Positions 2,390 through 34,972 of a stretch of 34,974 nucleotides of DNA are shown here, in pieces. Positions within the stretch are counted from its first letter, which is position 1; the number at the start of each line of letters is the position of its first letter. The stretch comes from an uncultured Bacilli bacterium. GTDB lineage: Bacteria > Bacillota_I > Bacilli_A > RFN20 > CAG-449. The notes beneath the pieces are model-generated. The model was not told the origin of the DNA. It saw nothing but the letters and a program-made list of their open reading frames with translations, and did not search any database. A program made the translations under genes and the position numbers. The DNA is taken from the NCBI GenBank assembly GCA_944332225.1, contig CALVJO010000015.1, positions 1-34,974 on the forward strand, in the 5' to 3' direction.

Positions 2390-5104
2390 ATGAAAGACAA
2401 AAAGAAACTTCTGCTTGCATTAGCTATAATTCCTCTTGTTGCCGTAGGTGTAACAGCATGTGGAAATATAACTTCATCAAGCTCTGGAGGATCATCTGAT
2501 TCCTCCTCAAGCGGCTCTAATTCCCAAGAATCGGCTACTTCTGATTCCTCAACATCAGAAGATAGTCAAGAAGAATTAGAAGACGCGACAATTTATGACG
2601 CTTACGAAGATACGCGTCCAAATTATGAAGATATCTTTGATTATGACTCTGACTATGAACCAGAACCATTACCAGATCAAGACGCTGAATTTGTTCTCTC
2701 ATTTAGAGAAGATTCACCAGTTAGATTCGCTGATGGTAGCTTACAAAAGAGCATTAAGGTCAATAGCTCAGTAACTTTAGAGGACTTTGATTTATCTCAA
2801 GTTGCTGAAGGTAAGACTTTAGGTGGTTTTGCTGTTGTTGGAGCTGATGGCTCGATTGGTCAACCAATTGATATTGAATCTTTTGCAATGCCAAGAGAAA
2901 ATACCACGATCGTTCCTTACTTTGTGATGGAAGGTTATACTCACTTAACTTATTCTTCCGGCAGCGCAAACCATGCATTTAACAGCGATGGCGTTCCAGG
3001 AGATTTCACTTCTTCAGGTGCATCTATTGAACATGGATTATTAGTTGAAGGTGAAGGTGGTTACTATTATGATGGTTCAGTTATCACTAAGACTAATAGA
3101 GTAGATGAGGCAGTTGCCTTTAGAACTGACACTAATGCCGCTGATATTATTTCTCAAGGTGGAATTTATGAAGTCTATGTAACTTACTCTAATCTTGGAG
3201 ATACTGCAATTCACCTTAATGCATATCAAATCAATGCTTCTTCAGAGTATAAGAACGGAAATTATGCTTATGAAGATAGATATAGAGTTGATATTGATCT
3301 TGAACCAGGTGAATCTATGGAAGTAGCAGTCCAATATAACTTTGCAAATAGCAATAATAACATCCTTAACTACTTTGTTGCTGATCAAACAATGGGAAAT
3401 GGATTTGTGATGGGTACTTCTATTTCTCTAAGAGCTAGAACTGATTTAACTGAGGTTGAAACAGTTTCCAATCCTGAAGAGAGACCAACTACACCTATCT
3501 ATCCTTCAGTCATTACAATGAGAGAAGATTCTCCATTAAAATTTGTTGATGGACAAACTACGATTGAAAAAGACTCGGGTTCTAAATTCACCTTAGAAGA
3601 TTTTGAAAACAATGGTGTCTACAATGATAGAACAGTTGGAGGAATCGGATTTGTCAATCCTAATGGCACTCTTAGCTACTCTCATAGCTTAGATGAATAT
3701 ACCGTTGGAAGTGATGATATAACCATTGTTCCTTATTTCACCGCGCCAAGTGAATATACTGATGTTGCTTTAAATTCTGGTCGTTCAAATAGAGATCAGG
3801 TTAATTTATCTAACTGTACAGGAACCTGGGCAAATAAAGAATCAGGACCAATATTAACTACTAATGAGATGGTTTATGATGGAGCTTTATATACTTCAGG
3901 TATTACTTTAAGAGATAGTGATTCAATCCTTAGAGGATCTGACTTTAGAATCGATTCTGCTTATGATGTTGAAGACAATAAAGTTTATGAATTCTACTAC
4001 TCATTTGAAAATAGAAACGATTATCCAGTTAGCTTTGATGTTTATCAAGTAACTGGTGGCTCTCAACAAGCTAATGATGCCTATGAAGATTCTCAATATA
4101 GAATCGATGTTGATTTGCAACCTGGTGAAGCAAAAACATATGTTGGACAATATAAATTAACTGATAATGGCAATGTATTAACTTTGATGGTTGCTGATAT
4201 TGCGATGCCTAACGGAATTAACTTAGGAATGCAAATGGCGGTGAAGGCTACTGATTTAACTGATGTTGAAGAAGAATATCTACCAACAAAAGAAGAAGAA
4301 GCAACTGCATCTATATCTCTTGATTTACCTGCTGGCATTACAGTAAGTGAAGACTTTGTTAAAGAATACGAAGTTGGTGATGCCTTAGTTGCTCCTACTA
4401 GCGAACAAGTTACTAACACCTCTGGAAAAGAAATTCTTGGATGGTATGTTAAAGGAACATTAGGTGATCCAATCGCCTATGTTGAAGATTCAGTCATGGA
4501 AGAAAACGGAGTTACTATCGCTCCAATTCTTGATGCTGAAGAAGGTAAACAATTGCTTCTTACTTCAGTAAGAGATCAAGCTGGAACTAGCTATCACCCA
4601 GACTGGTGGTTCAATCTCGATGAAGATGGAAATCAAAATCACTATGTTGACGAGGATGCTGGTGAAGAAATTGCTGATCACTTCAATGGATACTTATACA
4701 TTGATGAAAATAATTACCAAGCATTAAGACTTCAAAGTGATGATCCTTTCCATGCTAATGATTTCTTTAGATTAGTTTCTAAGTGCGGAACTTCTGGAGC
4801 TAGCGATGGAATCATCGGAGGACATACTTATAAATTTGACTTCAATTTACATAACTTTGGAACTCAAGAAATGAAACTTAAATTAGGGCTTGTCCAAGGT
4901 AGTAACTTAATTTCTACTGATGATGGAGCTGTTTACTCTAATGAAGTAACCATCAAACCTGGAGAGACGGTATCTACTTCAGTAACTATCACTTTAGAAA
5001 ACAACAATGCAAATAACATGGTCTTCGTTCAAATGTTGAATGAGATTGATTCCTTAGATTTAGGTATCACTCAATTTAAGACCAATGTAGTTACAGGAGA
5101 ATAA
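2390..5104 (+). CDS. modular surface lipoprotein, function unknown
   Basis: A 904-residue predicted lipoprotein. The start is ATG 2390, not the in-frame ATG 2378, because GGAG at 2380-2383 lies six bases before it and the resulting N-terminus is a proper lipoprotein signal. Residues 7-23 are hydrophobic and V-T-A-C forms the lipobox, with Cys24 the lipidated residue. A Ser/Gly/Asp/Glu-rich linker follows to about residue 95. The body has two tandem modules of about 270 residues (about 100-370 and 373-640). Each begins R-E-D-S-P-(V/L)-(R/K)-F, has a T-(T/I)-(I/T)-V-P-Y-F segment, then a Y-Q-(I/V) beta module with P-G-E. A third part from about 641 repeats the L-P-A-G-I-T and G-W-Y segments and ends in another beta module. 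These modules are paralogous to those in the 111-2075 protein. It is first in an operon with the membrane protein and GH3 enzyme, so a surface role linked to saccharide capture is plausible but unproven. Confidence 0.87.
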   Translation: MKDKKKLLLALAIIPLVAVGVTACGNITSSSSGGSSDSSSSGSNSQESATSDSSTSEDSQEELEDATIYDAYEDTRPNYEDIFDYDSDYEPEPLPDQDAEFVLSFREDSPVRFADGSLQKSIKVNSSVTLEDFDLSQVAEGKTLGGFAVVGADGSIGQPIDIESFAMPRENTTIVPYFVMEGYTHLTYSSGSANHAFNSDGVPGDFTSSGASIEHGLLVEGEGGYYYDGSVITKTNRVDEAVAFRTDTNAADIISQGGIYEVYVTYSNLGDTAIHLNAYQINASSEYKNGNYAYEDRYRVDIDLEPGESMEVAVQYNFANSNNNILNYFVADQTMGNGFVMGTSISLRARTDLTEVETVSNPEERPTTPIYPSVITMREDSPLKFVDGQTTIEKDSGSKFTLEDFENNGVYNDRTVGGIGFVNPNGTLSYSHSLDEYTVGSDDITIVPYFTAPSEYTDVALNSGRSNRDQVNLSNCTGTWANKESGPILTTNEMVYDGALYTSGITLRDSDSILRGSDFRIDSAYDVEDNKVYEFYYSFENRNDYPVSFDVYQVTGGSQQANDAYEDSQYRIDVDLQPGEAKTYVGQYKLTDNGNVLTLMVADIAMPNGINLGMQMAVKATDLTDVEEEYLPTKEEEATASISLDLPAGITVSEDFVKEYEVGDALVAPTSEQVTNTSGKEILGWYVKGTLGDPIAYVEDSVMEENGVTIAPILDAEEGKQLLLTSVRDQAGTSYHPDWWFNLDEDGNQNHYVDEDAGEEIADHFNGYLYIDENNYQALRLQSDDPFHANDFFRLVSKCGTSGASDGIIGGHTYKFDFNLHNFGTQEMKLKLGLVQGSNLISTDDGAVYSNEVTIKPGETVSTSVTITLENNNANNMVFVQMLNEIDSLDLGITQFKTNVVTGE

Positions 5105-5585: not shown

Positions 5586-8500
5586 ATGAAGAAAGTATTA
5601 AGTTTTGTAACCGGCGCGTTATTTAACATCAGCGTTATCGCTTTCGCCGGAACTCTCTTATTCCAAACATTATCTCAAAACGGAATGATTCAACAAAATG
5701 TTTTATACCCGCTTTTGGGAGCACCTACTACTGAAACCATCAATACTGGAAAACAACCGATTAGATTTAAAACTTGGTATACTTCAGTAAATGATGTAAT
5801 AAATGGTAACGGTGATGTTGCTAAAGCAGCTCAAGCTGAAGGAACTGTATTATTAAAGAATGATAATAACGCTCTTCCTTTAAATACCTCAACTGATTCA
5901 GTTTCCTTATTTGGAGTTAATGCTTATGATCCAATGTATTCCTTAGATGGTGCTGGTGAAGTTAAAATCAATCGTGAACGTCAACAATATTTCTATTCTG
6001 AATTTGAAAAAGCTGGCTTGACCATGAATGAAAGCTTAGCTACTTGGTATAATTCAAATCAAGATTACTGGAGAGATGACGTTATCGATATTTATGGTGG
6101 CGGGGGATCAAATAATACAAACGCTGCCTTAAATGGAGCTAATTGGTCAGATTTACCAGATGCTAAAAACGATTCTAATTTCAATACTGCAATTTTCGTT
6201 ACAGCGAGAATGACTAATGAAGGTATTGATATCATGCCAAATAATGTTAGCGGCATGGGAGCTTATAACAATGATTACCTTCAATTTACTGAAAACGAAA
6301 TCAGCGTTCTTGAAGGCTTAAAAGCAAGAAAAGATAATGGTGACTTAGATAAAATCATCGTAATATTCAACCAAGCGAATCCAGTCATGGAAGATTTACC
6401 TGAAGAGTTAGATAAATATGGAGTAGATGCAGCTTTATGGATTGGCACTCCTGGTAGCGATGGAATCGCTGCTGTTGCTGATATCTTAGTTGGAACTACT
6501 TCTCCTTCCGGAGGATTATCAGATACTTGGTTTACCGCGCGTGATAATCATCCTTCTACAGCATCATATGGACAATCTATTAATGTCATAATTCAAGAAG
6601 ATGTATATCTTGGATATAAGTATTCTGAATCTAGATATTATGATTATGTAACTGGTCAAGGAAATGCTGGAAATTGGATCTATGGAGACAATATCTCTTA
6701 TCCATTCGGCTACGGATTATCTTATGCTGACTTCTCTTATGAGTTAGTCTCAGTTGAAGCTAATCCAGATCCAAGCAAGAACTATGATAAAGTTGGCAAC
6801 TTAAAACCAGCTGAAGATAGACGTTATGTTGGAGAAGATTACGCGGATGATTTATTAGTAACTGTTAATGTCACTAATAATTCTCAAACAGTTTCCGGAA
6901 AAGAAATTGTCCAACTTTACGTTAATAAACCATATACCGAAACTGATAAAGAGCACGGAGTTGAATCTCCTTCTGTTGAATTAGTTGGCTATGGTAAAAC
7001 AAGAAAACTCGCTCCTGGTGAGACTGATACAGTTACAATTGAAGTAGACGCTAATAAGTTATTTGCTTCATATGATAAAACTGTAAAGACTTATACTTTA
7101 GAAGCTGGTAATTATTATTTAGCAGTTGCTAGAAACGCTCATGAAGCAATGAATTCTATCCTCTTACAACAAGCTTCTGAAGGAAATGGAGTAACTGTTG
7201 ATAGAAATAAGATGGATAGTGAATACGGTGAAGGTGATGCTGATTTAGTTGATACCATCGTAGTTAACAGCACCGATTCATCTAATTATGAATATGATAC
7301 TTGGGGAGGAGCAAAGGTAACTAACTTATTCGATGCTTCCGATCCTAATATCGCTTCTGGAAATCCTAACAAAGTTAAATTCATGTCCCGCGAAAACTGG
7401 GTTGATACTGCTGATAATGGTAAGGATCAAATCGCCTCTGCTCAAAATAATGAATGGGCTAATGAAGGCGATATGAACGTTAATAACATATTTAACGGAA
7501 ACAGCGGATTCACTACAGAAAACGGAAGACAAAATGTTGAAACTTATCTTCCTGAAGTTCTTGAAAGATATCCTGATGAATATCCAAATTATGGATTACA
7601 TAGAAATGGTAACGTCGCGGAAGTTCAACTTTCTGAGATGATCGGTGTTCAATATGATCCTGAACACGGAGCCACTGAAGAAGATATTGAAAAATGGGAT
7701 TACTTCCTTGATCAATTAACTTGGGAAGAATCAATCACTTTAGTAGGAAATGGTTTAAGAAGAACTATCAATATTGATAGCATCGGTAAACCATATACTA
7801 ACGATGTTAACGCATCTAACGCTATATCATGGAAATTTGATATGTCTAATGATGGTTCAGGAACATCTAACGTTGGATTTGCTTATCATTTCGATGCTGG
7901 AAATAGAAATCACTATCCAACAGGCTACCCTTGCGAAGGAATCATCGCATCTTCCTTCAATAATGAAATTGCTTATGCTATTGGACAAGCTATCGGTGAA
8001 GATGGCCTCTGGACTGGAGCTTCTGGATTATATGGATTTGGTTTAGGCTTACATCGTAACCCATATCACGGAAGAGCTGGTGAATATTATTCTGAAGATC
8101 CATTCTTAACCGGAATGATTGGAGGTTACTCATCTAAAGGTGCTCAATCTAAAGGATTATACGTTTATAACAAGCACTTTGTCTTAAACGATCAAGAAAC
8201 TAATAGAACTGGTTATAAGACTTGGTTAACCGAACAATGCATGAGAGAAACTTACTTAAGACCATTTGAAATCGCTATTGAAATTGGAGATGCGATGAAC
8301 GTCATGAACTCATTCAATAAGATTGGTTCAGCTTGGTCAGGTGGTATTTATAACTTAATGACCGCTTGCTTAAGAGATGAATTCGGAATGAGAGGATTCG
8401 CAGTCACTGACTATTGGCAATCCGGAGGAATGAATATTCGTTTCGGTATGTTAGCTGGTACTGATTTACCTGATGGAACCGGCGCGCAAAGTCAAATTAG

Positions 8501-26822: not shown

Positions 26823-27350
26823 ATGAATAAACAAAGAATCTTACATTTTATTGAAAAAGCACTTATTATTGTCGGCGCGTTAGTTGTCATTCTCGGCTTT
26901 GTGCTTTCTCCAATGCTTGATGAAGGAGCAGGCTATCAAGGATTCTTAACCTTATCGGTTATAGCCTCTGTAATCGGAGGTTTCTGGATTTTAATTATAT
27001 TAGGATTAGGAACTGCAGCATATTTAAGCAAAAAATGTTCTAATGTTGGTTTATGGTTAACTTTAGCTACGCATGCTACAGTTTTAACAGTTTGCCTTGC
27101 ATCATTTAACAATGAAAGTACTTCCTTATCATGCATAATTGCTTTAATAGGAACCATAATTTATTTTGTTGGCTTAATATTTAAAGGTATTAATTGCCTA
27201 TTAATTAAATCAAGTTCTCCTGATGATGATCCTCTCATTCAATCTATCATTAAATGGAAAGAATTACAGGAAAGAGGAATTATCACTCAAGAAGAATTTG
27301 AAGAAAAAAGATGCTCAATACTCAATATTAAAAAAGAAACAAAGAAATAG
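26823..27350 (+). CDS. four-helix membrane protein with C-terminal SHOCT domain
   Basis: A 175-residue membrane protein. Hydrophobic segments lie at about 9-30, 38-68, 76-98 and 101-121. The cytoplasmic tail (about 137-169) matches the SHOCT motif: I-K-W-K-E-L-Q-E-R-G-I-I-T-Q-E-E-F-E-E-K-(R)-x-x-I-L (consensus L-x-x-L-x-x-G-x-I-T-x-E-E-F-x-x-K-K). SHOCT domains are short helical hairpins found at the end of many membrane proteins, probably for oligomerisation. GGGG-type ribosome site before the ATG. It stands alone between its own promoter and terminator. Function unknown. Confidence 0.85.
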   Translation: MNKQRILHFIEKALIIVGALVVILGFVLSPMLDEGAGYQGFLTLSVIASVIGGFWILIILGLGTAAYLSKKCSNVGLWLTLATHATVLTVCLASFNNESTSLSCIIALIGTIIYFVGLIFKGINCLLIKSSSPDDDPLIQSIIKWKELQERGIITQEEFEEKRCSILNIKKETKK

Positions 27351-27365
27351 TTTATTAAATGAATT

Positions 27366-27396
27366 AAGGGTCAATGTGATTTTGACCCTTTTATTT
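27366..27396 (+). terminator. terminator of the SHOCT gene
   Basis: AAGGGTCAA (27366-27374) pairs perfectly with TTGACCCTT (27382-27390), followed by TTTATTT. Confidence 0.88.
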
Positions 27397-27546
27397 AACT
27401 CAATAATAATGCTAGTTTTGGATTAATCATCTTTTACATTTCAAAATATAATTAAGGTGTAATTATTTAAGCCGAAATCACTATTATTATTTCTTATTGG
27501 AAGTATACTAAATTTTAATTTAAGAAAGATAACTATAATTTCAATT

Positions 27547-28023
27547 CTATCTATAAAGTACAACAATTTTAGGATCTGACAAATCTTGTTCTCTAACAAA
27601 GCATTCTGCGTAATCTCCAACTTGATATGAAGTAAAATATTTAGAGAATATTCTAGATACAAATCTAATTCTAACTTTTTTATTTAAATTATCTGTTTCG
27701 ATTTTTCCATACATTACACTACCTATGGATCTTTCTAGGATTTTAACATGAATCAATTTTCCTTTTGAATTAATAAATGGCAAAAATCTATATAGATATA
27801 TAATCAAAGAAGCAATAAAGCAAATAGCAAACAATACATCTATCAATATTAAAACACTAAATATTTCATTAACTGCTTCTTGATTAGCATTTGTGGAATC
27901 AAAAGACTTTAAATAAAATATCAAGCATAAAAAGCAAATAAATGTTATTAGTTGAATTGCTAAGGAAATAATCATCCAATAAAAACCGTACATTCTTTTA
28001 ATGTTGAATTTTTCCATATTCAT
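27547..28023 (-). CDS. small membrane protein with two helices and beta-rich tail
   Basis: A 158-residue protein. Two membrane helices (about 13-39 and 54-77) are followed by an 80-residue soluble part with alternating charged and hydrophobic residues, ending I-V-V-L-Y-R. The layout recalls DUF3592-type proteins, in which membrane helices flank a small beta domain, but I cannot confirm the family. AGGAGG lies eight bases before ATG 28023. It has a near-consensus promoter and an inverted repeat at the start site, so it is probably a regulated single gene. It opens the accessory region. Confidence 0.72.
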   Translation of the reverse strand: MNMEKFNIKRMYGFYWMIISLAIQLITFICFLCLIFYLKSFDSTNANQEAVNEIFSVLILIDVLFAICFIASLIIYLYRFLPFINSKGKLIHVKILERSIGSVMYGKIETDNLNKKVRIRFVSRIFSKYFTSYQVGDYAECFVREQDLSDPKIVVLYR

Positions 28024-28044
28024 TCAAAAAACCTCCTATGTCTT

Positions 28045-28062
28045 GGTTAGTCGCGGCTAACT
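28045..28062. promoter_or_regulatory. inverted repeat over the start site, candidate operator
   Basis: GGTTAG-TCGCGG-CTAACT contains perfect GTTAG/CTAAC arms around a GC-rich centre, in an otherwise AT-rich region. It lies just downstream of the -10 box of the 28023 gene, where a repressor would block transcription. No regulator gene is adjacent. Confidence 0.5.
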
Positions 28063-28064
28063 AA

Positions 28065-28092
28065 AATATACTACTTCCTTTTTATATGTCAA
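28065..28092 (-). promoter_or_regulatory. strong promoter of the 28023 gene
   Basis: On the - strand, perfect TTGACA (28087-28092) and TATATT (28065-28070) are separated by 16 bases. Confidence 0.8.
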
Positions 28093-28097
28093 TAATT

Positions 28098-28165
28098 TTA
28101 ATCAAGCGATTTCTTAAGTGTATTTATGCTTGCTTCAATCTGTGTCGTAGCTACATTGTCGGTGC
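28098..28165 (-). pseudogene. C-terminal remnant of an LLH-type phage holin
   Basis: On the - strand the frame ending at TAA 28098-28100 reads T-T-Q-I-E-A-S-I-N-T-L-K-K-S-L-D, the end of an LLH-family holin. Only about 22 codons remain; an in-frame stop lies upstream. The same segment closes the two longer remnants at 28933 and 34340. This is a third copy reduced to its tail. Confidence 0.65.
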
Positions 28166-28210
28166 CTCATAAGACTATAGTGACGAGGATATTGAAAAAT
28201 AAACTATTTT

Positions 28211-28876
28211 TTACTTTTCGTGGTAACCTCCTTTTATTAATGTTTCTATTCCTCTTGAAATAAATTCTTTACTAAATGGGTAAGGATTAACATCTTTATT
28301 CAATTTTAATATCTCATCATAGCTTTTTAGAAGCTTTACATTTGTTTCTTTTTCTACAAACATCGAATTTGAGTATTCATAAATAGAATCAGTATAAGAA
28401 AATAAATCGCAAGAAATTCTTTGATATAAATCATCTGCTCTTTTTTTGATATAGTCCACATAAATCCCTGACTGAGATATTTTCATTTGTCCATTATCTG
28501 ATATATGAAATATACAAGATAATTCATAAAAAGATGTTAGTTGAAAAACAAAATCGTTTCGAATATAAAATAAAAGACTAACATCATTATTGACATGTTT
28601 AACAAGAACCAATTTATTTTTTGAAAATATATATTCGATATAAACTGTAGATTTTGGTTTCTTAGTAGAAAGGCAACTTGAAGGAACAAAAATATTTGTG
28701 CAGAAGTCAATTAAATAGTTAAAGTGCCCAAGACCATAATAATCTTTCTTGTTCGAAGTCTTAGTAAATAAAGATAATGAAAATTTTTGTTTGTTTATTT
28801 CATCACCAAAATCAATAGAAGAAAACTTCCTCCAAATAGAAATTCCTTCCATTTGCAATTTTAAATATTCATCCAT
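28211..28876 (-). CDS. hypothetical protein, 221 residues
   Basis: A soluble-looking protein without signal peptide or membrane helix. It is rich in Phe, Tyr, Ser and Lys. The sequence alternates beta-like stretches (for example V-Y-I-E-Y-I-F and L-V-L-V-K-H-V) and ends in a helical part near 140-215. I recognise no motif. GGTGAG lies a few bases before the ATG, a modest ribosome site. It lies between two holin remnants in the accessory region, so a phage or island origin is likely. Function unknown. Confidence 0.6.
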   Translation of the reverse strand: MDEYLKLQMEGISIWRKFSSIDFGDEINKQKFSLSLFTKTSNKKDYYGLGHFNYLIDFCTNIFVPSSCLSTKKPKSTVYIEYIFSKNKLVLVKHVNNDVSLLFYIRNDFVFQLTSFYELSCIFHISDNGQMKISQSGIYVDYIKKRADDLYQRISCDLFSYTDSIYEYSNSMFVEKETNVKLLKSYDEILKLNKDVNPYPFSKEFISRGIETLIKGGYHEK

Positions 28877-28932
28877 TTAACTCACCAATGTAATTATATG
28901 GCATTACCTCATTCAATACAAAGCCTTTCAAT

Positions 28933-29386
28933 TTATGCCTTGTTTGATGTGTTTTTAAGTGTATTTATACTTGCCTCAATCTGAGTGGTAATCCAAGTAT
29001 CAACGTCACCAAAGTTGGTTTTAATGTAGTTCTTGATATCTTCGCTTAATTGAGAAATAACGATATATTTAGCTTTATTAAGAGCGATTAATTGACTTCT
29101 TTTTCAATGTTTCCTTCTTTCTTTAAGGCTTCAACATAGGTTTAAAAGACACATTTAACTGCATCAAAAACAATTGTGGTTGCTTCAGTTAAGTATTTTT
29201 CCGTTTTCTCATTATCAATCTTGCCAGAAATCCATTTGATAAGTTTAGATCCTAGTAATGTGATAAGTGAAATTACTATTGCTGCTACTGCTAATCAGAT
29301 ATTTTCTTTTTATTTCAGTTGGAAGAACATATTTAATAGAGCGCTCTTTAACAATTTCTAATTTTTCTTTTAAAGTTTTTTTTCAT
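28933..29386 (-). pseudogene. decayed LLH-family phage holin, copy 1
   Basis: Read on the - strand, the body encodes an LLH-type holin. It has a hydrophobic segment starting L-A-V-A-A-I-V-I-S-L-I, then L-T-E-A-T-T-I-V, T-Y-V-E-A-L-K-K-E-G-N-I-E, and W-I-T-T-Q-I-E-A-S-I-N-T-L-K before TAA at 28933. The frame is broken: TAA replaces a codon just before T-Y-V-E, one base is missing after E-K-E, and the first 30 codons after ATG 29386 are in another frame from the hydrophobic segment. Family members form phage membrane pores. No other phage gene is adjacent. Confidence 0.8.
28954..29386 (-). repeat. long direct repeat, copy 1 (partner 34394-34825)
   Basis: About 430 bases nearly identical to 34394-34825 in the same orientation, with scattered substitutions and a few one-base indels. 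The two copies enclose about 5 kb of accessory genes and could recombine to delete them. Confidence 0.88.
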
Positions 29387-29437
29387 AAAAAAATCCCCAC
29401 TATAATTTTACCAATTTCAGGGAAAAATTTCGTGGGA
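29387..29437 (-). terminator. weak terminator after the AlbA_2 fragment
   Basis: On the - strand CCCAC and GTGGG are followed by GATTTTTTT. The stem has five pairs and the loop is long (31 bases), so it may not be efficient. Confidence 0.35.
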
Positions 29438-29468
29438 ATATCATCTCATATGTCTTTGTGCTATCACT

Positions 29469-29651
29469 TTAATACAAAACGATACCCCAAACGAAATAAG
29501 CAAATTCTTTTCCTACCAACACTGCAGCATTTGAAAGCGCAGAAACATATTCACCAAGTGCAATTGGTTCAAACCAATTTTCTTTAAATTCAAACCATTC
29601 TCTTTCTTTTGAAAATTGTAATAATTCAGACAATAACTCTTTAATATTCAT
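29469..29651 (-). pseudogene. truncated AlbA_2/Schlafen-type DNA-binding domain
   Basis: About 60 residues from ATG 29651 match the beginning of the AlbA_2 domain: S-K-E-R-E-W-F-E-F-K-E-N, then G-E-Y-V-S-A-L-S-N-A-A, then G-K-E-F-A-Y-F-V-W-G-I. Intact proteins of this type continue for 300 or more residues, often with an AAA_4 or winged-helix part. Here the reading frame ends right after W-G-I. The longer frame begins with TTG at 29663, but that part lies in an inverted repeat. A remnant of a regulatory or defence-type protein, or a captured domain. Confidence 0.7.
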
Positions 29652-29706
29652 ATTTATTACCAACTTTTATTACCAATGTAATTTTATTAAATAGTTGGTA
29701 ATAAAT
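29652..29706. repeat. 14-bp inverted repeat plus direct repeat upstream of the AlbA_2 fragment
   Basis: ATTTATTACCAACT (29652-29665) and AGTTGGTAATAAAT (29693-29706) are perfect inverted repeats with a 27-base spacer. A further TTATTACCAA at 29667-29676 repeats the left arm directly. It sits exactly over the expected leader and ribosome site, so it may be an operator bound by the truncated protein's ancestor. Confidence 0.6.
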
Positions 29707-29827
29707 CAAATTGAACTTGTACAAACATTATTTTTCATAACGCAGGTATCATTTTTCTAGTAGAACTAAAATCCTAAAAATCATAAGTTCGAGCCAATTT
29801 TTCTCTACTAGCAAAACGCCAAAAATT

Positions 29828-29850
29828 AAAAAATGCCCGATTTCTCGAGC
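29828..29850 (-). terminator. terminator of the HEPN-motif gene transcript
   Basis: On the - strand GCTCGA-GAAA-TCGGGC forms a six-pair stem (one G-T pair) with a stable GAAA loop, followed by A and six T. It lies downstream of the gene at 30007. Confidence 0.75.
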
Positions 29851-29877
29851 AAATATCTTTCATTTTGAGACCATTGC

Positions 29878-29931
29878 TTTGTATCAAAATGGTTATTTCT
29901 TGCCTTTTTATAACTAACATTTTGATACAAA
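29878..29931. repeat. long near-perfect inverted repeat
   Basis: TTTGTATCAAAATGGTTA (29878-29895) and TAACATTTTGATACAAA (29915-29931) are inverted copies differing by one base, with a spacer of about 19. It has no good T-run, so it is not a standard terminator. It could be a small non-autonomous element end pair, an operator or an mRNA-stabilising 3' hairpin of the 30007 gene. Confidence 0.6.
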
Positions 29932-30006
29932 ATGAATACTCCCCTGCAAAATTTGAATACTCTATCTAAAGCAATTGAAGAAATCAAATTTTCTGTAGAA
30001 TATATT

Positions 30007-30603
30007 TTATTTCATTATACATTCTGCTATGTCTACTAATGTTTTTATTTTAATAGTTCCTCTTCCTCTAATAACCAAACTTTCGCAATCCTCTAGAATC
30101 AAATAGTAAAACTTACCAATTTTACGGATTTCAAAATTTCCGTGACATAAACAATTTCTAACAAAATCAAAGAGTGCTGGAATTCTTGATCCGTTTCCAT
30201 ATGATTTTTTTATGCAAATGCGCTCTAATGTAATTTCTTCATTTGATGGAAACTTCCTATTTTTAAACCAGATAGACATCTTGTTTTCATTATCTTTTGG
30301 TTCTAAAAAACAGAACCTCCCACAGTCATCAAAATTATAAATTTGATTAATTTCTTTTTTTAATCCTGGATTAGTAAAATCAATTTGTCTTTTCTCTTTA
30401 ATTAGATAAGATTTCCTTGTTTTCAAAGGAAGATTTACTGGAGTAATTACATAATATAAATAAAGTTTTCCTATAATTTCCTGTGAGATGTTTATTTTCT
30501 CATTTTCAACTAGAATTGAATTAGAAATGTCTCCATCCATCAGAGGTATATCATTATATTTATCTGAACCATTATTTTTTTTATTTTCCTTCTTTTTTGC
30601 CAT
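30007..30603 (-). CDS. HEPN-motif protein 1
   Basis: A 198-residue soluble protein. The N-terminal 20 residues are a Lys/Asn-rich, disordered-looking stretch. The middle is beta-rich. Near residue 140-160 is F-V-R-N-C-L-C-H-G-N-F, in which R149 and H154 fit the R-x4-H active-site motif of HEPN ribonucleases, with the frequently seen R-N...H-G form. The C-terminus has G-K-F-Y-Y-L-I-L-E-D and R-G-R-G-T. HEPN proteins are often RNase toxins or defence effectors, but many have lost activity. A motif match alone does not prove this. GGAGG precedes the ATG. It is the last gene of a - strand run that includes a second HEPN-motif protein. Confidence 0.6.
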   Translation of the reverse strand: MAKKKENKKNNGSDKYNDIPLMDGDISNSILVENEKINISQEIIGKLYLYYVITPVNLPLKTRKSYLIKEKRQIDFTNPGLKKEINQIYNFDDCGRFCFLEPKDNENKMSIWFKNRKFPSNEEITLERICIKKSYGNGSRIPALFDFVRNCLCHGNFEIRKIGKFYYLILEDCESLVIRGRGTIKIKTLVDIAECIMK

Positions 30604-30763
30604 AATAAAACCTCCAAAAACCTCTTTTTATTCATGTGAAAAAATTATATCCGTTTAATCGCCTTGAATCAATTGTCATACATAGGTATTTAAATACAAA
30701 ACACATGATAATTGTATTGTTTTGGAACATATGTATCTATTTTTGCTAGCCTATCCATATTAA
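30604..30763 (-). other. intergenic stretch between HEPN 1 and the UDG-like pseudogene
   Basis: About 160 AT-rich bases. Apart from the HEPN 1 ribosome site at its low end I see no distinct promoter or terminator. Confidence 0.4.
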
Positions 30764-31326
30764 TTAGTCTTTAGACTTCAATTGTGATATAAGATCATCT
30801 GCAATTCTTTTAATTTTTTCTTTTTTGTCATCACTAGAAATAGTGTTTAGGCCTTTAGTTCAGAGATGACACATTGCTTTTAAATGTGAAATATTAGCTG
30901 TTTTAAGCGCCAATTCGACGTCAGCTCCAAATGCAATAACATAGCTTTTGCCATTAAGTTCTTTTTCAACCTATTTATATTTTTATCGGATTTTATATCT
31001 ACAACATAAGGTGTTGTTCTTTTATCAGATAATCCCTTATATCCTTTATAATAAACATGATTACTTGAATTATTAATGTGATAGTCTTCTTTTTTATCAG
31101 ATAAAAATATATCAGATCTACATTTTTTTAATTCTTTTAATAAAAAGTTCAAGTTTTTTCCTGTGATCCCGGATACTAAAGTGTTGTTTTTTAACTCCAC
31201 CTGACCAGGGCAAGAAAAGACAAGCCCAATGTTAATTTTACTATTAATTTCAGCATTTACACATTTTCTTGTGTTTATATCTTTGAGAATTTCATTTTTA
31301 TTTCTTCGTTTTTTCTTATTAAGCAT
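30764..31326 (-). pseudogene. frameshifted uracil-DNA-glycosylase-superfamily gene
   Basis: The first frame reads G-L-V-F-S-C-P-G-Q-V-E and G-I-T-G-K-N-L-N-F-L-L-K-E-L, the N-terminal signature of uracil-DNA-glycosylase-like proteins. After R-L the sequence slips: the next frame continues K-E-L-N-G-K-S-Y-V-I-A-F-G-A-D-V-E and later H-L, stop, T-K-G-L-N, where family members usually have H-x-S-x-x-G-L-N. One lost base near 30968 and a TCA-to-TGA change would explain both. The original protein of about 185 residues ended at TAA 30764-30766. Without repair the first frame gives 148 residues with a scrambled tail. It begins eight bases after the HEPN 2 gene, so it was part of that operon. Confidence 0.75.
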
Positions 31327-31334
31327 ATATATTT

Positions 31335-31805
31335 CTAGTGAATTAGCTTTACTTCCTTTTTCATCATACTAAATATCTTGCAAAGAACGTTATTTACTTC
31401 ATTCATTCTATATACCAACTCTTGCAAACGAGGAATATATTGCTTTGGATTATTTTGAAATTCTTTACTGAATAAATCATCTTTAAAAATATGATGAATG
31501 AAGTAGTTTCTTTCTTCTCGTACATGGTCTATTTCATTAATAAAATCTTTCGTAAAGATATTTTTTTCTTCAATAAAACCTTGAAGTTTCCCTAATTCTT
31601 TCTTAGTTAATTTTTCATACCATTCATTTGTTTTTTTCATCAAATCGTTATAATCAATAAGATTCATTGAATCTATCTCATCAAATGTAGATAAAATCTC
31701 ATTTAAACCAAGAATATTTGCAAGATTATATTCAATCATTTGTGAAAGATTAACTATAAATCCAATACTCCCCCACACCTTTTTATAATAATGTTTTTTT
31801 AACAT
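31335..31805 (-). CDS. HEPN-motif protein 2
   Basis: A 156-residue, mainly helical soluble protein. It has helix-forming stretches throughout and the motif R-E-E-R99-N-Y-F-I-H104-H, which fits the R-x4-H signature of HEPN domains and their all-helical fold. The overall layout (helix pair, long charged loop, R-N-x-x-x-H helix, final amphipathic helix) resembles small HEPN proteins found in defence islands. Activity is not shown. GAGGG precedes the ATG. It follows the transglutaminase-like gene by 11 bases and precedes the UDG-like gene by eight, so the three look co-transcribed. Confidence 0.6.
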   Translation of the reverse strand: MLKKHYYKKVWGSIGFIVNLSQMIEYNLANILGLNEILSTFDEIDSMNLIDYNDLMKKTNEWYEKLTKKELGKLQGFIEEKNIFTKDFINEIDHVREERNYFIHHIFKDDLFSKEFQNNPKQYIPRLQELVYRMNEVNNVLCKIFSMMKKEVKLIH

Positions 31806-31816
31806 AAAATACCCTC

Positions 31817-32332
31817 TTATTTTGCAATTAAAACAAATCTTTCATTCGATAAATTTTGTTCTAACCACTTTCTGCTCAAATACACCTTACAATTCTTAGC
31901 GAGATCAATTGTTAAGTTAATCAAATTTATCTCTGGACTACCTTTCAAGTAATCATATAAATTATTTTCATATGCAAACTCTGCTTGTGCGTCTAACCCT
32001 AAAAATTTAATACCATATGACATCTCCACTTCTAACCCTGTACTAATATCGATAGACCCATAAACAGGGCCCTTTGCCATACTATGTATAAATGGCATAG
32101 ATATTGCAATATCATAAATTTTTCCATCAATTAATAGCCAAGAATGGTCAAAAGGTTCATATTGTTTTTGTTTGCATTCACCAATACATGGAGTTGAATT
32201 AATACCAACTTTTTTTGCAAAAGCAAACATTATCGCAGTTGTTGCATGACATGCGCCATACCAATTTTTTTTCTTCATAAACTTATATAGCTCATCACAA
32301 AAGCTTTGAAATAATTTAATTTTTTCACTCAT
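31817..32332 (-). CDS. transglutaminase/papain-like candidate cysteine enzyme
   Basis: A 171-residue soluble protein. W-Y-G-A-C28-H begins a helix, F-D-H63-S-W-L-L-I-D-G opens a strand, and K-I-Y-D74-I-A follows. A cysteine at a helix start, then His and Asp on neighbouring strands with the H-x-W...D-G-x-x-x-D pattern is typical of transglutaminase-like cysteine proteases. The family could also include amidases or inactive binders. No signal peptide, so the target would be cytoplasmic. The sequence C-H-A-T-T-A-I-M-F-A is compatible with the catalytic helix. A modest GGAG-like site precedes the ATG. It lies between the RNase III gene (47 bases upstream) and HEPN 2 (11 bases downstream). Confidence 0.55.
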   Translation of the reverse strand: MSEKIKLFQSFCDELYKFMKKKNWYGACHATTAIMFAFAKKVGINSTPCIGECKQKQYEPFDHSWLLIDGKIYDIAISMPFIHSMAKGPVYGSIDISTGLEVEMSYGIKFLGLDAQAEFAYENNLYDYLKGSPEINLINLTIDLAKNCKVYLSRKWLEQNLSNERFVLIAK

Positions 32333-32379
32333 CAGTACTCCCCTTTTTTAAAATTTTTTTAAGCAATATGAATTAACTT

Positions 32380-33219
32380 CTATTCATTATCTTTAGAAAA
32401 TTCATCGTTTAGACCAAAATAATCACATAAAACTAAGTATGCAGCATATCTTTTTGCCTCTTTTTTTGATGTAGCATAAGCCGTTTGTTGGATACCCCAG
32501 TTTCTAATATAACAAGTACATTCCCACATATAGCTTCCATCATTCATTTCAACTTGACCATCAGATGTATAGTATTCAGGAATAGAACATCTTCCGTGTT
32601 CAGCCATTTCCTTTAATGTGGTGATTGCATTCTCTTCTTGAAACTTTGCAGGTCTTTCTTCTTCAGTGTCAACATCTTCGAGAAAATCATCAATTTTAAG
32701 CATGAACTCTACTGAGTTTTGAAGGTCATCTTGATTCCAATCGCAATCAATTGCAATGGCACCTAATATAGCCTCAAATAGATCAGCCTTAACCTTTTCT
32801 TGATTTACAACATTATTATCTAAGTCGCTATCTCCTAGATACATATATTTTGCAAATCCAAACTTATCAATTCTTTTTGCGAGTGTTTTGTTATTAACAA
32901 TTTCTTTTCTTAATTCAGTGAAGTCACCTTCATTTTTATGGGCGATAATGCAATATTCATTGTTATCTTCATCTTCATCGTAATATTCTGATTGAGATTT
33001 CATAAATCCAAATCTATCAGCAATGACTTTTGTTACATACATATCAAGTACTTTATCGCCTAAAAATTCCAAGACTTCATTGTTTTCACCACCATACTGA
33101 GCTGAATAAGAACTTCTTGTAAAGGCTTGAAGAAGTAAATCAATATTATTAAACCAATAACTTATTTTTCTTTGTACTTCTTCCAAATTTGAATCTTCGT
33201 TTAAATTTACCATTTTCAT
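32380..33219 (-). CDS. accessory RNase III with divergent dsRNA-binding tail
   Basis: A 279-residue double-strand-specific ribonuclease. The signature N-E-V-L-E-F-L-G-D-K-V-L supplies E48, E51 and D55, and K-A-D-L-F-E-A-I-L-G-A supplies D146 and E149, so all metal-binding residues of the family are present. Between them is an insert rich in Asp, Glu and Tyr (about 75-105) not typical of housekeeping RNase III. The C-terminal 75 residues fit a dsRNA-binding domain, ending T-S-K-K-E-A-K-R-Y-A-A-Y-L-V-L. AGGAGG lies before ATG 33219. The gene is not next to the usual smc/ftsY or acpP neighbours and sits in an island behind a structured leader, so I regard it as an accessory paralogue. It could process its own leader, as RNase III does in E. 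coli. Confidence 0.88.
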   Translation of the reverse strand: MKMVNLNEDSNLEEVQRKISYWFNNIDLLLQAFTRSSYSAQYGGENNEVLEFLGDKVLDMYVTKVIADRFGFMKSQSEYYDEDEDNNEYCIIAHKNEGDFTELRKEIVNNKTLAKRIDKFGFAKYMYLGDSDLDNNVVNQEKVKADLFEAILGAIAIDCDWNQDDLQNSVEFMLKIDDFLEDVDTEEERPAKFQEENAITTLKEMAEHGRCSIPEYYTSDGQVEMNDGSYMWECTCYIRNWGIQQTAYATSKKEAKRYAAYLVLCDYFGLNDEFSKDNE

Positions 33220-33237
33220 TATTATTTCCTCCTAACT

Positions 33238-33446
33238 TTGTCCTAAGGAAATAAAAAAGACTTATTACCGATAAGAATACACTCCACCCATAGCGTAGAT
33301 AGAGTATCCCGTAGTTTTAAGTCTTAATTTAATCAAAATAATTTTTGTAAGTTTACCTATCTAAATCATCCCACTCGCATAAGATGATTTAAATAAATCC
33401 CGTTACTCAAGTACTTTGAGGAAACTAATCCTTCCCTATCGGACAA
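33238..33446 (-). ncRNA. structured leader RNA of the RNase III gene
   Basis: On the - strand, TTGTCC at the transcript start (33441-33446) pairs with GGACAA (33238-33243), and AAGGA (33429-33433) pairs with TCCTT (33245-33249), closing the whole leader. Inside are stems CTCAA/TTGAG (33406-33420), TAAATCATC/GATGATTTA (33362-33391, nine perfect pairs) and AAGACTTA/TAAGTCTT (33257-33325). The last is followed by TTTTTT, so it is a terminator-like attenuator; a smaller stem CTTAT/ATAAG (33261-33275) competes with it. ACGGGAT occurs twice in loops. No known riboswitch class is recognised. It could sense a ligand, be cleaved by the encoded RNase III, or be released as a free RNA. Confidence 0.65.
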
Positions 33447-33450
33447 TAAG

Positions 33451-33479
33451 ATTATATCATCCATTATATGGTTTGTCTA
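33451..33479 (-). promoter_or_regulatory. promoter of the RNase III leader
   Basis: On the - strand TAGACA (33474-33479) and a perfect TATAAT (33451-33456) are 17 bases apart. The expected start near 33444 falls at the first paired bases of the leader. Confidence 0.8.
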
Positions 33480-33485
33480 CACTCT

Positions 33486-33517
33486 AAAAAAACCAGCCAA
33501 TAAAAGCTGGAATTTTT
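33486..33517 (-). terminator. terminator on the - strand upstream of the RNase III promoter
   Basis: On the - strand CCAGC and GCTGG form a five-pair stem followed by seven T. No annotated - strand gene lies directly upstream, so it may end a short transcript starting within 33520-33700. Confidence 0.6.
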
Positions 33518-33944
33518 GATAAATGACAAAGTAAATTCAGTTTATATAACTTAAAAGCGAAATTAATTTGACAATATATAATAGAAATGTGTTTCTTGTC
33601 GTTTAAGTAATAAGAAAATAAAGGCTGTCAAAACAATTGGTTCAATCTGTGGCAACAGCCTTTTATTATCTAATAAACACTTCATCTATTCATCATATTA
33701 CTTTTCAATTGTCTATAATTTGACTCATATTTCTAAAGTTTACTAACGTCATTATCATTAATATTGGACTTATCAAAACTAATGATGTTTTCCTTTTTAA
33801 ACCATATTTATTGCCATATAATATTTTTGTGTTATATTTGATTTTTCATTGTTTATATATCTTTGGCTCTTTGGGTAGCATTTTAATCCCGTCTGGACGA
33901 CCATTTTTGACATTAAAAACTCTGATTTACTGTTCAAGACATAC
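33518..33944. other. gene-free stretch of about 430 bases
   Basis: No coding region is supported. It contains the hairpin at 33620-33667 and, on the - strand, a TTGACA at 33626-33631 without a clear -10 partner. A further TTGACA at 33907-33912 (+) may serve the next gene. Otherwise AT-rich and featureless. Confidence 0.5.
33620..33667 (+). terminator. long-loop hairpin with T-rich tail
   Basis: AAAGGCTGT (33620-33628) pairs perfectly with ACAGCCTTT (33655-33663) around a 26-base loop, followed by T and ATT. It could end a short + strand RNA or be the core of a small RNA itself. Confidence 0.5.
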
Positions 33945-34898: not shown

Positions 34899-34972
34899 TG
34901 GCAGGGGTAGCAGGAATCGAACCCGCAATAACGGTTTTGGAGACCGTTGCTATACCATTTAACTATACCCCT
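34899..34972 (-). tRNA. trnW: tRNA-Trp (CCA anticodon)
   Basis: On the - strand an AGGGGTA/TACCCCT acceptor stem is followed by discriminator G and an encoded CCA. The anticodon stem ACGGT/ACCGT encloses the loop CTCCAAA, giving anticodon CCA, which reads UGG. The T-arm is GCGGG-TTCGATT-CCTGC. Length 74. A CCA anticodon with no UCA form seen agrees with UGA being a stop codon. Confidence 0.97.

What the first reader, a model, noticed from the sequence alone, without database searches (positions are those of the whole stretch)
33220..33479. 209-nt closed leader RNA in front of the accessory RNase III
A perfect promoter, end-to-end pairing (TTGTCC/GGACAA and AAGGA/TCCTT), a nine-pair hairpin, and two competing stems before a U-run point to a folded, switch-like RNA. 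The gene product cuts double-stranded RNA, so autoregulation by cleavage is a simple model. A ligand-sensing or phage-sensing role is also possible. ACGGGAT occurs twice in unpaired segments.
Basis: partly seen in the sequence, partly recalled or inferred. Interest (0 to 1): 0.68.

Follow-up and report, generated by a model that had tools for sequence, protein, structure and literature searches.

The report
Conserved RNA switch before accessory RNase III
The stretch of RNA in front of an extra, probably mobile gene for a double-stranded-RNA-cutting enzyme folds into a shape kept by evolution in dozens of Firmicutes and mollicutes, and it looks like a built-in switch that hides or exposes the gene's ribosome-binding site, probably so that the enzyme can limit its own production.

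Summary
The leader is real and much more than chance. A covariance model built only from 27 clostridial relatives finds the window leader (33332-33422, minus strand, E = 3.9e-5). Across 61 distinct leaders, 93.7% of predicted pair cells pair and 25 of 28 pairs show compensatory changes on both sides (268 cells; shuffles at most 92). No Rfam family matches. The RNA marks a deep clade of accessory RNase IIIs (77/77 keep the four catalytic acidic residues), separate from the housekeeping enzyme that the 12 genomes checked also carry. Found copies lie directly upstream of such a gene: a cis-acting leader.

In 51 of 58 loci the nucleotides that close the RNA are the ones that would otherwise pair with the ribosome-binding site. 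I infer a translational switch: closed RNA = ON; 5' end removed = OFF. Cleavage of the conserved 18-20 bp hairpin by the encoded RNase III would give negative feedback, like E. coli rncO but with a different RNA. Cleavage, direction of control and ligands are untested; an RNA partner of a mobile defence nuclease is not excluded.

The parts
33451..33479 (-). promoter of the leader: -35 TAGACA (33479-33474), 17-nt spacer, extended -10 TATAAT (33456-33451)
   Evidence: Sequence; a -10/-35 pair at the equivalent place in most of 59 loci
33238..33446 (-). structured leader RNA, 209 nt from the 5' to the 3' strand of closing stem P1
   Evidence: Fold z = -5.3; covariation
33429..33446 (-). P1 5' strand (UUGUCC...AAGGA), at or within a few bases of the predicted mRNA 5' end; it resembles the SD and would hold the anti-SD
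   Evidence: P1 duplex better than the mean of shuffles in 56 of 59 loci
33412..33419 (-). P2 5' strand UCAAAGUA
   Evidence: pairs with 33340-33333
33403..33406 (-). P3 5' strand GUAA
   Evidence: GUAA/UUAC here, UUGU/ACAA and AUAAA/UUUAU in other groups
33379..33398 (-). P4 5' strand, 20 bp
33375..33378 (-). GCGA (GNRA) tetraloop closed by U.G; GCAA or GAAA in most relatives
   Evidence: alignment; almost invariant U[GNRA]G
33355..33374 (-). P4 3' strand
33347..33350 (-). P3 3' strand UUAC
33333..33340 (-). P2 3' strand UAUUUUGA
33257..33325 (-). P5: outer stem AAGACUUA (33325-33318)/UAAGUCUU (33264-33257) enclosing a hairpin
   Evidence: compensatory change to AGACCUUU/AAAGGUCU in L033
33253..33258 (-). 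U-run after P5; possible attenuator, close group only
   Evidence: absent after P5 in the clostridial leaders
33238..33249 (-). P1 3' strand (UCCUU + GGACAA), which contains the anti-SD
33222..33254 (-). P6: SD-sequestering hairpin, UUAUUUCCUU (33254-33245)/GAGGAAAUAA (33231-33222), incompatible with P1
33228..33233 (-). Shine-Dalgarno AGGAGG
   Evidence: sequence
32380..33219 (-). accessory RNase III, 279 aa, catalytic E51, D55, D146, E149, one weak C-terminal dsRBD
   Evidence: Pfam, alignments, tree

Best explanation
It is the 5' leader of the accessory RNase III mRNA and acts in cis as a translational switch. Transcription starts at or next to P1. The mRNA 5' end pairs with an anti-SD just before the gene (P1), with a long rod (P2-P3-P4, 18-20 bp tip, GNRA loop) and a second hairpin (P5) between the two strands. 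While P1 holds the anti-SD, the SD is exposed and RNase III is made. When the 5' strand is lost, the anti-SD captures the SD (P6) and translation stops. The most likely trigger is RNase III itself cutting the rod, so that enzyme activity lowers its own synthesis; a surge of other double-stranded RNA would keep the leader intact and raise synthesis. Shown: structure, covariation, cis linkage, overlap of P1 and P6. Inferred: direction of the switch, cleavage, feedback. (Rough breakdown: conserved cis leader 0.97; SD toggle 0.75; self-cleavage as trigger 0.5.)
For: A model built only from clostridial leaders finds the window leader and those of Acholeplasma and others; 25/28 pairs covary, 93.7% of cells paired against 38-47% with slid partners. 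Whole-genome scans of 48 genomes: copies found lie before an RNase III, and two genomes with two RNA copies have two such genes. RNA and protein divergence correlate (Mantel rho 0.66, 0 of 500 permutations). The SD is paired with probability 0.91 in the 3' segment alone, against 0.68 in shuffles and 0.73 in the full leader; in 51/58 loci its partners are P1 nucleotides. Promoter placed just before P1. All four catalytic residues kept in 77/77. Precedents: rnc, rne and pnp autoregulation, reviewed in PMC3997798.
Against: No transcript, cleavage or reporter data. A cut in P4 alone would leave P1-P3 paired, so release of the 5' strand needs further cuts or exonuclease (as in pnp). In the window itself predicted SD pairing is the same (0.63) with or without the 5' part, because a rival stem (CCGAUAGGGA with UUCUUAUCGG) competes for the 5' strand. 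The housekeeping RNase III could be the cutter. Conserved loop sequence goes beyond what a simple cleavage site needs.
Confidence: 0.5

Rival explanations
1. The RNA is a partner of the enzyme: a processed, stable RNA bound by the accessory RNase III as guide, cofactor or inhibitor, the pair forming a mobile anti-phage or toxin-antitoxin-like module.
For: Strong conservation of loop sequence (U[GNRA]G) and strict one-to-one linkage; neighbours include PglZ and BrxL (BREX) and AbiEi/AbiEii in L033 and an AbiLi-type AAA ATPase with an AbiLii-like partner in L035, tandem serine recombinases in L032 and L035 and a recombinase next to the leader in L046 and L057; patchy distribution: relatives above 30% identity over most of the protein in only 4 of 18 genomes of the family.
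Against: The leader's 3' strand doubles as anti-SD, which a stand-alone RNA would not need; no PADLOC model matches the enzyme; no copy seen away from the gene; neighbours vary from locus to locus.
Confidence: 0.2
2. A ligand-binding riboswitch (metabolite, ion, or a phage or host RNA) that sets P1 versus P6.
For: Same anatomy as translational riboswitches: conserved domain, closing stem, anti-SD exchange; conserved internal loops.
Against: Always before the same nuclease gene in the loci seen, no metabolic context; most of the conserved RNA is helix rather than a large conserved pocket.
Confidence: 0.12
3. Transcription attenuator: P5 plus U-run ends most transcripts, and pairing further upstream relieves it.
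For: P5 stem directly followed by about six U in the window and most of the close group, with compensatory changes.
Against: Clostridial leaders have no U-run after P5; the stem is AU-rich and encloses about 50 nt; the anti-SD feature is far more widely conserved.
Confidence: 0.1
4. A leader cut by the housekeeping RNase III, so that the mobile enzyme is controlled by its host.
For: All 12 host genomes checked also carry the ordinary rnc.
Against: The RNA co-varies with the accessory protein, which favours a partnership with that protein.
Confidence: 0.08

Closest known systems
rncO, the RNase III operator in the 5' leader of the E. coli rnc operon (Bardwell 1989; Matsunaga 1996, cited in PMC3997798)
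   Same: Structured 5' leader of an RNase III gene; plausible negative feedback by cleavage of its own mRNA.
   Different: No Rfam match; another enzyme clade; end-to-end closed RNA whose 3' strand is an anti-SD, so control is predicted at translation initiation, whereas rncO cleavage speeds mRNA decay (from memory).
pnp leader autoregulation (PNPase with RNase III; EMBO J 2001, cited in PMC3997798)
   Same: A double-stranded leader is cut, and removal of the short 5' strand represses translation (detail from memory), close to the step proposed here.
   Different: Different gene and RNA; here the nuclease gene itself would supply the cut.
RNase E 5' UTR (rne) feedback element
   Same: Conserved leader stem-loop that senses the enzyme's own activity.
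   Different: Unrelated RNA and single-strand-specific enzyme.
Translational riboswitches with anti-SD exchange
   Same: Three-strand toggle: closing strand, anti-SD, SD.
   Different: No ligand or binding pocket identified; linked only to an RNase III gene.
6S RNA and other closed ncRNAs
   Same: Closed rod of about 200 nt.
   Different: No Rfam match, always in cis before a gene.

Membership tests
rncO | Lies in the 5' leader of an RNase III gene | tested here: met
rncO | Sequence and structure match to a described family | tested here: not met
   No Rfam 15 match at gathering score for the window or 18 other loci; at E up to 10 only weak, unrelated matches
rncO | RNase III cuts the leader and expression falls | not testable with these tools
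   needs biochemistry or a reporter
structured cis-regulatory RNA class | Compensatory base changes across divergent homologues | tested here: met
   25 of 28 pairs, 268 cells, against at most 92 in shuffles
structured cis-regulatory RNA class | Consistent position before one gene family | tested here: met
   genomes were chosen through the protein, so only the reverse whole-genome scan is independent
translational switch | Alternative helices share a strand with the SD helix | tested here: met
   51 of 58 loci; SD sequestration above shuffles
translational switch | Expression changes with the state of the helices | not testable with these tools
   needs a reporter
intrinsic-terminator attenuator | Stem followed by a U-run, conserved across the family | tested here: not met
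   present in window and close group, absent after P5 in clostridial leaders
type III toxin-antitoxin RNA | Tandem RNA repeats before an endoribonuclease | tested here: not met
   single structured unit in all aligned leaders
active RNase III | Four catalytic acidic residues | tested here: met
   77/77
housekeeping RNase III (rnc) | Groups with rnc in a tree | tested here: not met
   Clean split of 77 accessory from 18 housekeeping proteins, support 1.0

The most novel reading that the evidence does not exclude
The leader is both switch and cognate RNA of a mobile dsRNA-sensing nuclease module: cutting of the leader reports on free RNase III activity, and foreign dsRNA (for example from phage) titrates the enzyme, keeps the leader intact and boosts synthesis, or releases the enzyme from an inhibitory RNA.
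Probability: 0.2. Interest if true: 0.85.

Novelty: new variant of a known kind. Interest (0 to 1): 0.62.

Why it matters
It defines an apparently undescribed class of structured leader RNA (at least 61 distinct examples) tied to a neglected, patchily distributed clade of catalytically intact RNase IIIs that sit beside the ordinary enzyme, at some loci in defence islands or next to serine recombinases. The three-strand arrangement makes a clear prediction: the state of the mRNA 5' end decides whether the ribosome-binding site is free. If the enzyme cuts the rod, the mRNA is a direct gauge of dsRNA-cleaving activity. Cultured species carry it (Acholeplasma granularum, A. equifetale, Lachnospira multipara, Agathobacter ruminis, Pseudobutyrivibrio, Butyrivibrio), so it can be tested.

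Tried and rejected
Rfam: no match. DNA search within the genus found no second copy: the leader is too diverged for blastn. R1 scan of the window's own genome missed even the known copy, because the first-look filter scored only 150 of 1493 candidates; an empty result there means nothing. A small peptide starting at AUGCRAGUG in the P4 tip: rejected, the AUG is lost in several relatives and no SD precedes it. ACGGGAT repeat: rejected, not conserved. Terminator/attenuator as the family-wide mechanism: rejected. Clostridial-type leaders in viral contigs: none for two patterns. A literature search in the open-access library found no paper describing this RNA, and four genome-wide motif papers checked do not mention an RNase III leader; their supplements could not be read. 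First attempt at the tree picked up one housekeeping protein only and was redone.

Full report
WHAT IS THERE. On the minus strand a strong promoter (TAGACA-17-TATAAT, extended -10) is followed by a leader of about 210-225 nt and the gene for a 279-aa RNase III-like protein, 33219-32380. Pfam gives RNase III (E down to 2.6e-18) and a weak C-terminal dsRBD. The ordinary rnc lies elsewhere in the same genome. The leader folds far better than shuffles (z = -5.3). Neither Rfam at gathering score nor a permissive scan gives a credible family.

HOMOLOGUES. Close relatives of the protein exist in one family member (75%, L033), a viral contig (80%, L032) and, further off, L035 and L036. Upstream DNA of the two close ones is strongly conserved with compensatory changes, for example AAGACUUA/UAAGUCUU against AGACCUUU/AAAGGUCU. 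One scan of the genome collection brought 80 loci from Acholeplasma, Izemoplasma-type bacteria, Lachnospiraceae, Oscillospiraceae and other Clostridia. Most carry a comparable leader. Rfam does not match the leaders of 18 of these loci either.

STRUCTURE. A covariance model of the inner domain was built from 27 clostridial leaders only. It found the window leader (33332-33422, E = 3.9e-5 in 703 kb) and the leaders of Acholeplasma and others, in nearly every case just upstream of the RNase III gene (opposite-strand shadows of the same palindromic sites are ignored). On 61 distinct forward matches, 93.7% of pair cells form standard pairs and 25 of 28 pairs have double-sided changes in 268 cells; shuffles give a mean of 71 and a maximum of 92 cells, and partners slid by 1-3 columns pair in only 38-47% of cells. 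This alignment was fitted to the model, so it leans towards the structure; the MAFFT alignment of 29 clostridial leaders independently shows 18 of 38 predicted pairs with compensatory changes. Anatomy: closing stem P1; P2; P3 (GUAA/UUAC here, UUGU/ACAA in Clostridia, AUAAA/UUUAU in a third group); P4 of 18-20 bp with near-constant length, capped by U[GNRA]G (GCAA, GAAA, GCGA); P5; then the SD region.

CIS LINKAGE. Scanning 48 host genomes with the model found the RNA in 41, normally once, with a weaker shadow on the other strand. The extra copies in two genomes precede second RNase III genes (L153, L154), and a third is a contig-end overlap. Only the best 89 candidates per genome were scored, so distant extra copies could be missed. 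Distances among the RNAs track distances among the proteins (Mantel rho 0.66, 0/500). In a tree the 77 accessory enzymes separate from 18 housekeeping ones with support 1.0; loci with no model match form mainly one lineage, but folds of several of those leaders show a similar closed design and an SD-complementary segment. The catalytic residues E51, D55, D146 and E149 are invariant in 77/77. Twelve host genomes checked all have the ordinary rnc as well.

THE SWITCH. P1 is supported: duplex energy between 5' end and pre-gene segment averages -18.8 kcal/mol, against -14.9 with partners swapped between loci and -12.6 with shuffled partners, better than shuffles in 56 of 59. The new point is that the 3' strand of P1 is an anti-SD. 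In the 3' segment alone the SD is paired with mean probability 0.91, against 0.68 when the upstream part is shuffled (Wilcoxon p = 5e-10; related sequences, so not independent) and 0.73 in the full leader. In 51 of 58 loci the SD pairs with nucleotides that also form P1. Examples are CCUUUUAGUAAA-UUUACUGAAAGG (L066) and CCUUCUUAUAG-CUAUAAGGAGG (L063). In the window, UUAUUUCCUU/GAGGAAAUAA competes with AAGGA/UCCUU of P1. Caveat: in the window the 5' strand is also claimed by a rival stem (CCGAUAGGGA/UUCUUAUCGG) and predicted SD pairing does not differ between full and truncated RNA. A promoter sits just before P1 in most loci (mean -10 mismatches 0.61), so P1's 5' strand is at or near the mRNA 5' end.

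MECHANISM. Shown: conserved structure, position in cis, mutually exclusive P1 and P6. Inferred: closed RNA leaves the SD free; loss of the 5' strand lets the anti-SD take the SD; the accessory RNase III cuts the rod and so represses itself. A cut in P4 alone would not free the 5' strand, so trimming or further cuts are needed, as in the pnp leader. Nuclease autoregulation is well known (rnc, rne, pnp; PMC3997798); this RNA, its enzyme clade and the SD toggle at the mRNA end are what is new.

CONTEXT. Neighbours vary. Some loci lie in defence or mobile settings: PglZ, BrxL and AbiEi/AbiEii near L033; an AbiLi-type AAA ATPase with an AbiLii-like partner in L035; serine recombinases directly upstream in L032, L046 and L057 and nearby in L035. 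Among 89 sampled neighbours no single family dominates. No control set of neighbours was scanned, so enrichment is not shown. The accessory enzyme itself matches no PADLOC model.

VERDICT. A real, conserved, apparently undescribed leader RNA class. Best reading: translational autoregulatory switch (0.5), with an RNA-partner or defence role as the main rival (0.2).

Noticed in passing
L045:1034-1142 and L047:about 5890-5944: In two loci the first half of the leader is replaced at the same point (just before AUUUUGAUUUAAUAAGACC), by a tRNA gene in L045 and by what looks like a mobile-element end in L047; possibly an insertion hotspot or assembly joins.
   Followed up: no
window 33485-33510 and L032 about 4240-4270: A terminator-like hairpin (CCAGC...GCTGGTTTTTT) directly upstream of the leader promoter in both; in L032 it follows tandem serine recombinases, hinting at a shared ancestral module.
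   Followed up: partly
window 32380-33219; L032, L033, L040, L041: RNase IIIs of the close group are about 275-280 aa and lack the first of two C-terminal dsRBD-like segments found in the 345-380 aa relatives.
   Followed up: partly
L047, L052, L056, L084: Some RNase III copies are truncated or interrupted, as expected of a dispensable mobile gene.
   Followed up: no
window 26823-33219: Between groES and the RNase III lies a run of small genes with no Pfam family (30007-32332), two with weak PHROG matches; a variable region close to a tRNA-Trp (34899-34972).
   Followed up: no
window 33605-33682: A long AAAGGCTGT...ACAGCCTTT inverted repeat upstream of the leader; not examined.
   Followed up: no
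window 31335-31805: 156-aa protein with a match to phrog_12893 (E = 4e-4), unknown phage family, downstream of the RNase III.
   Followed up: no
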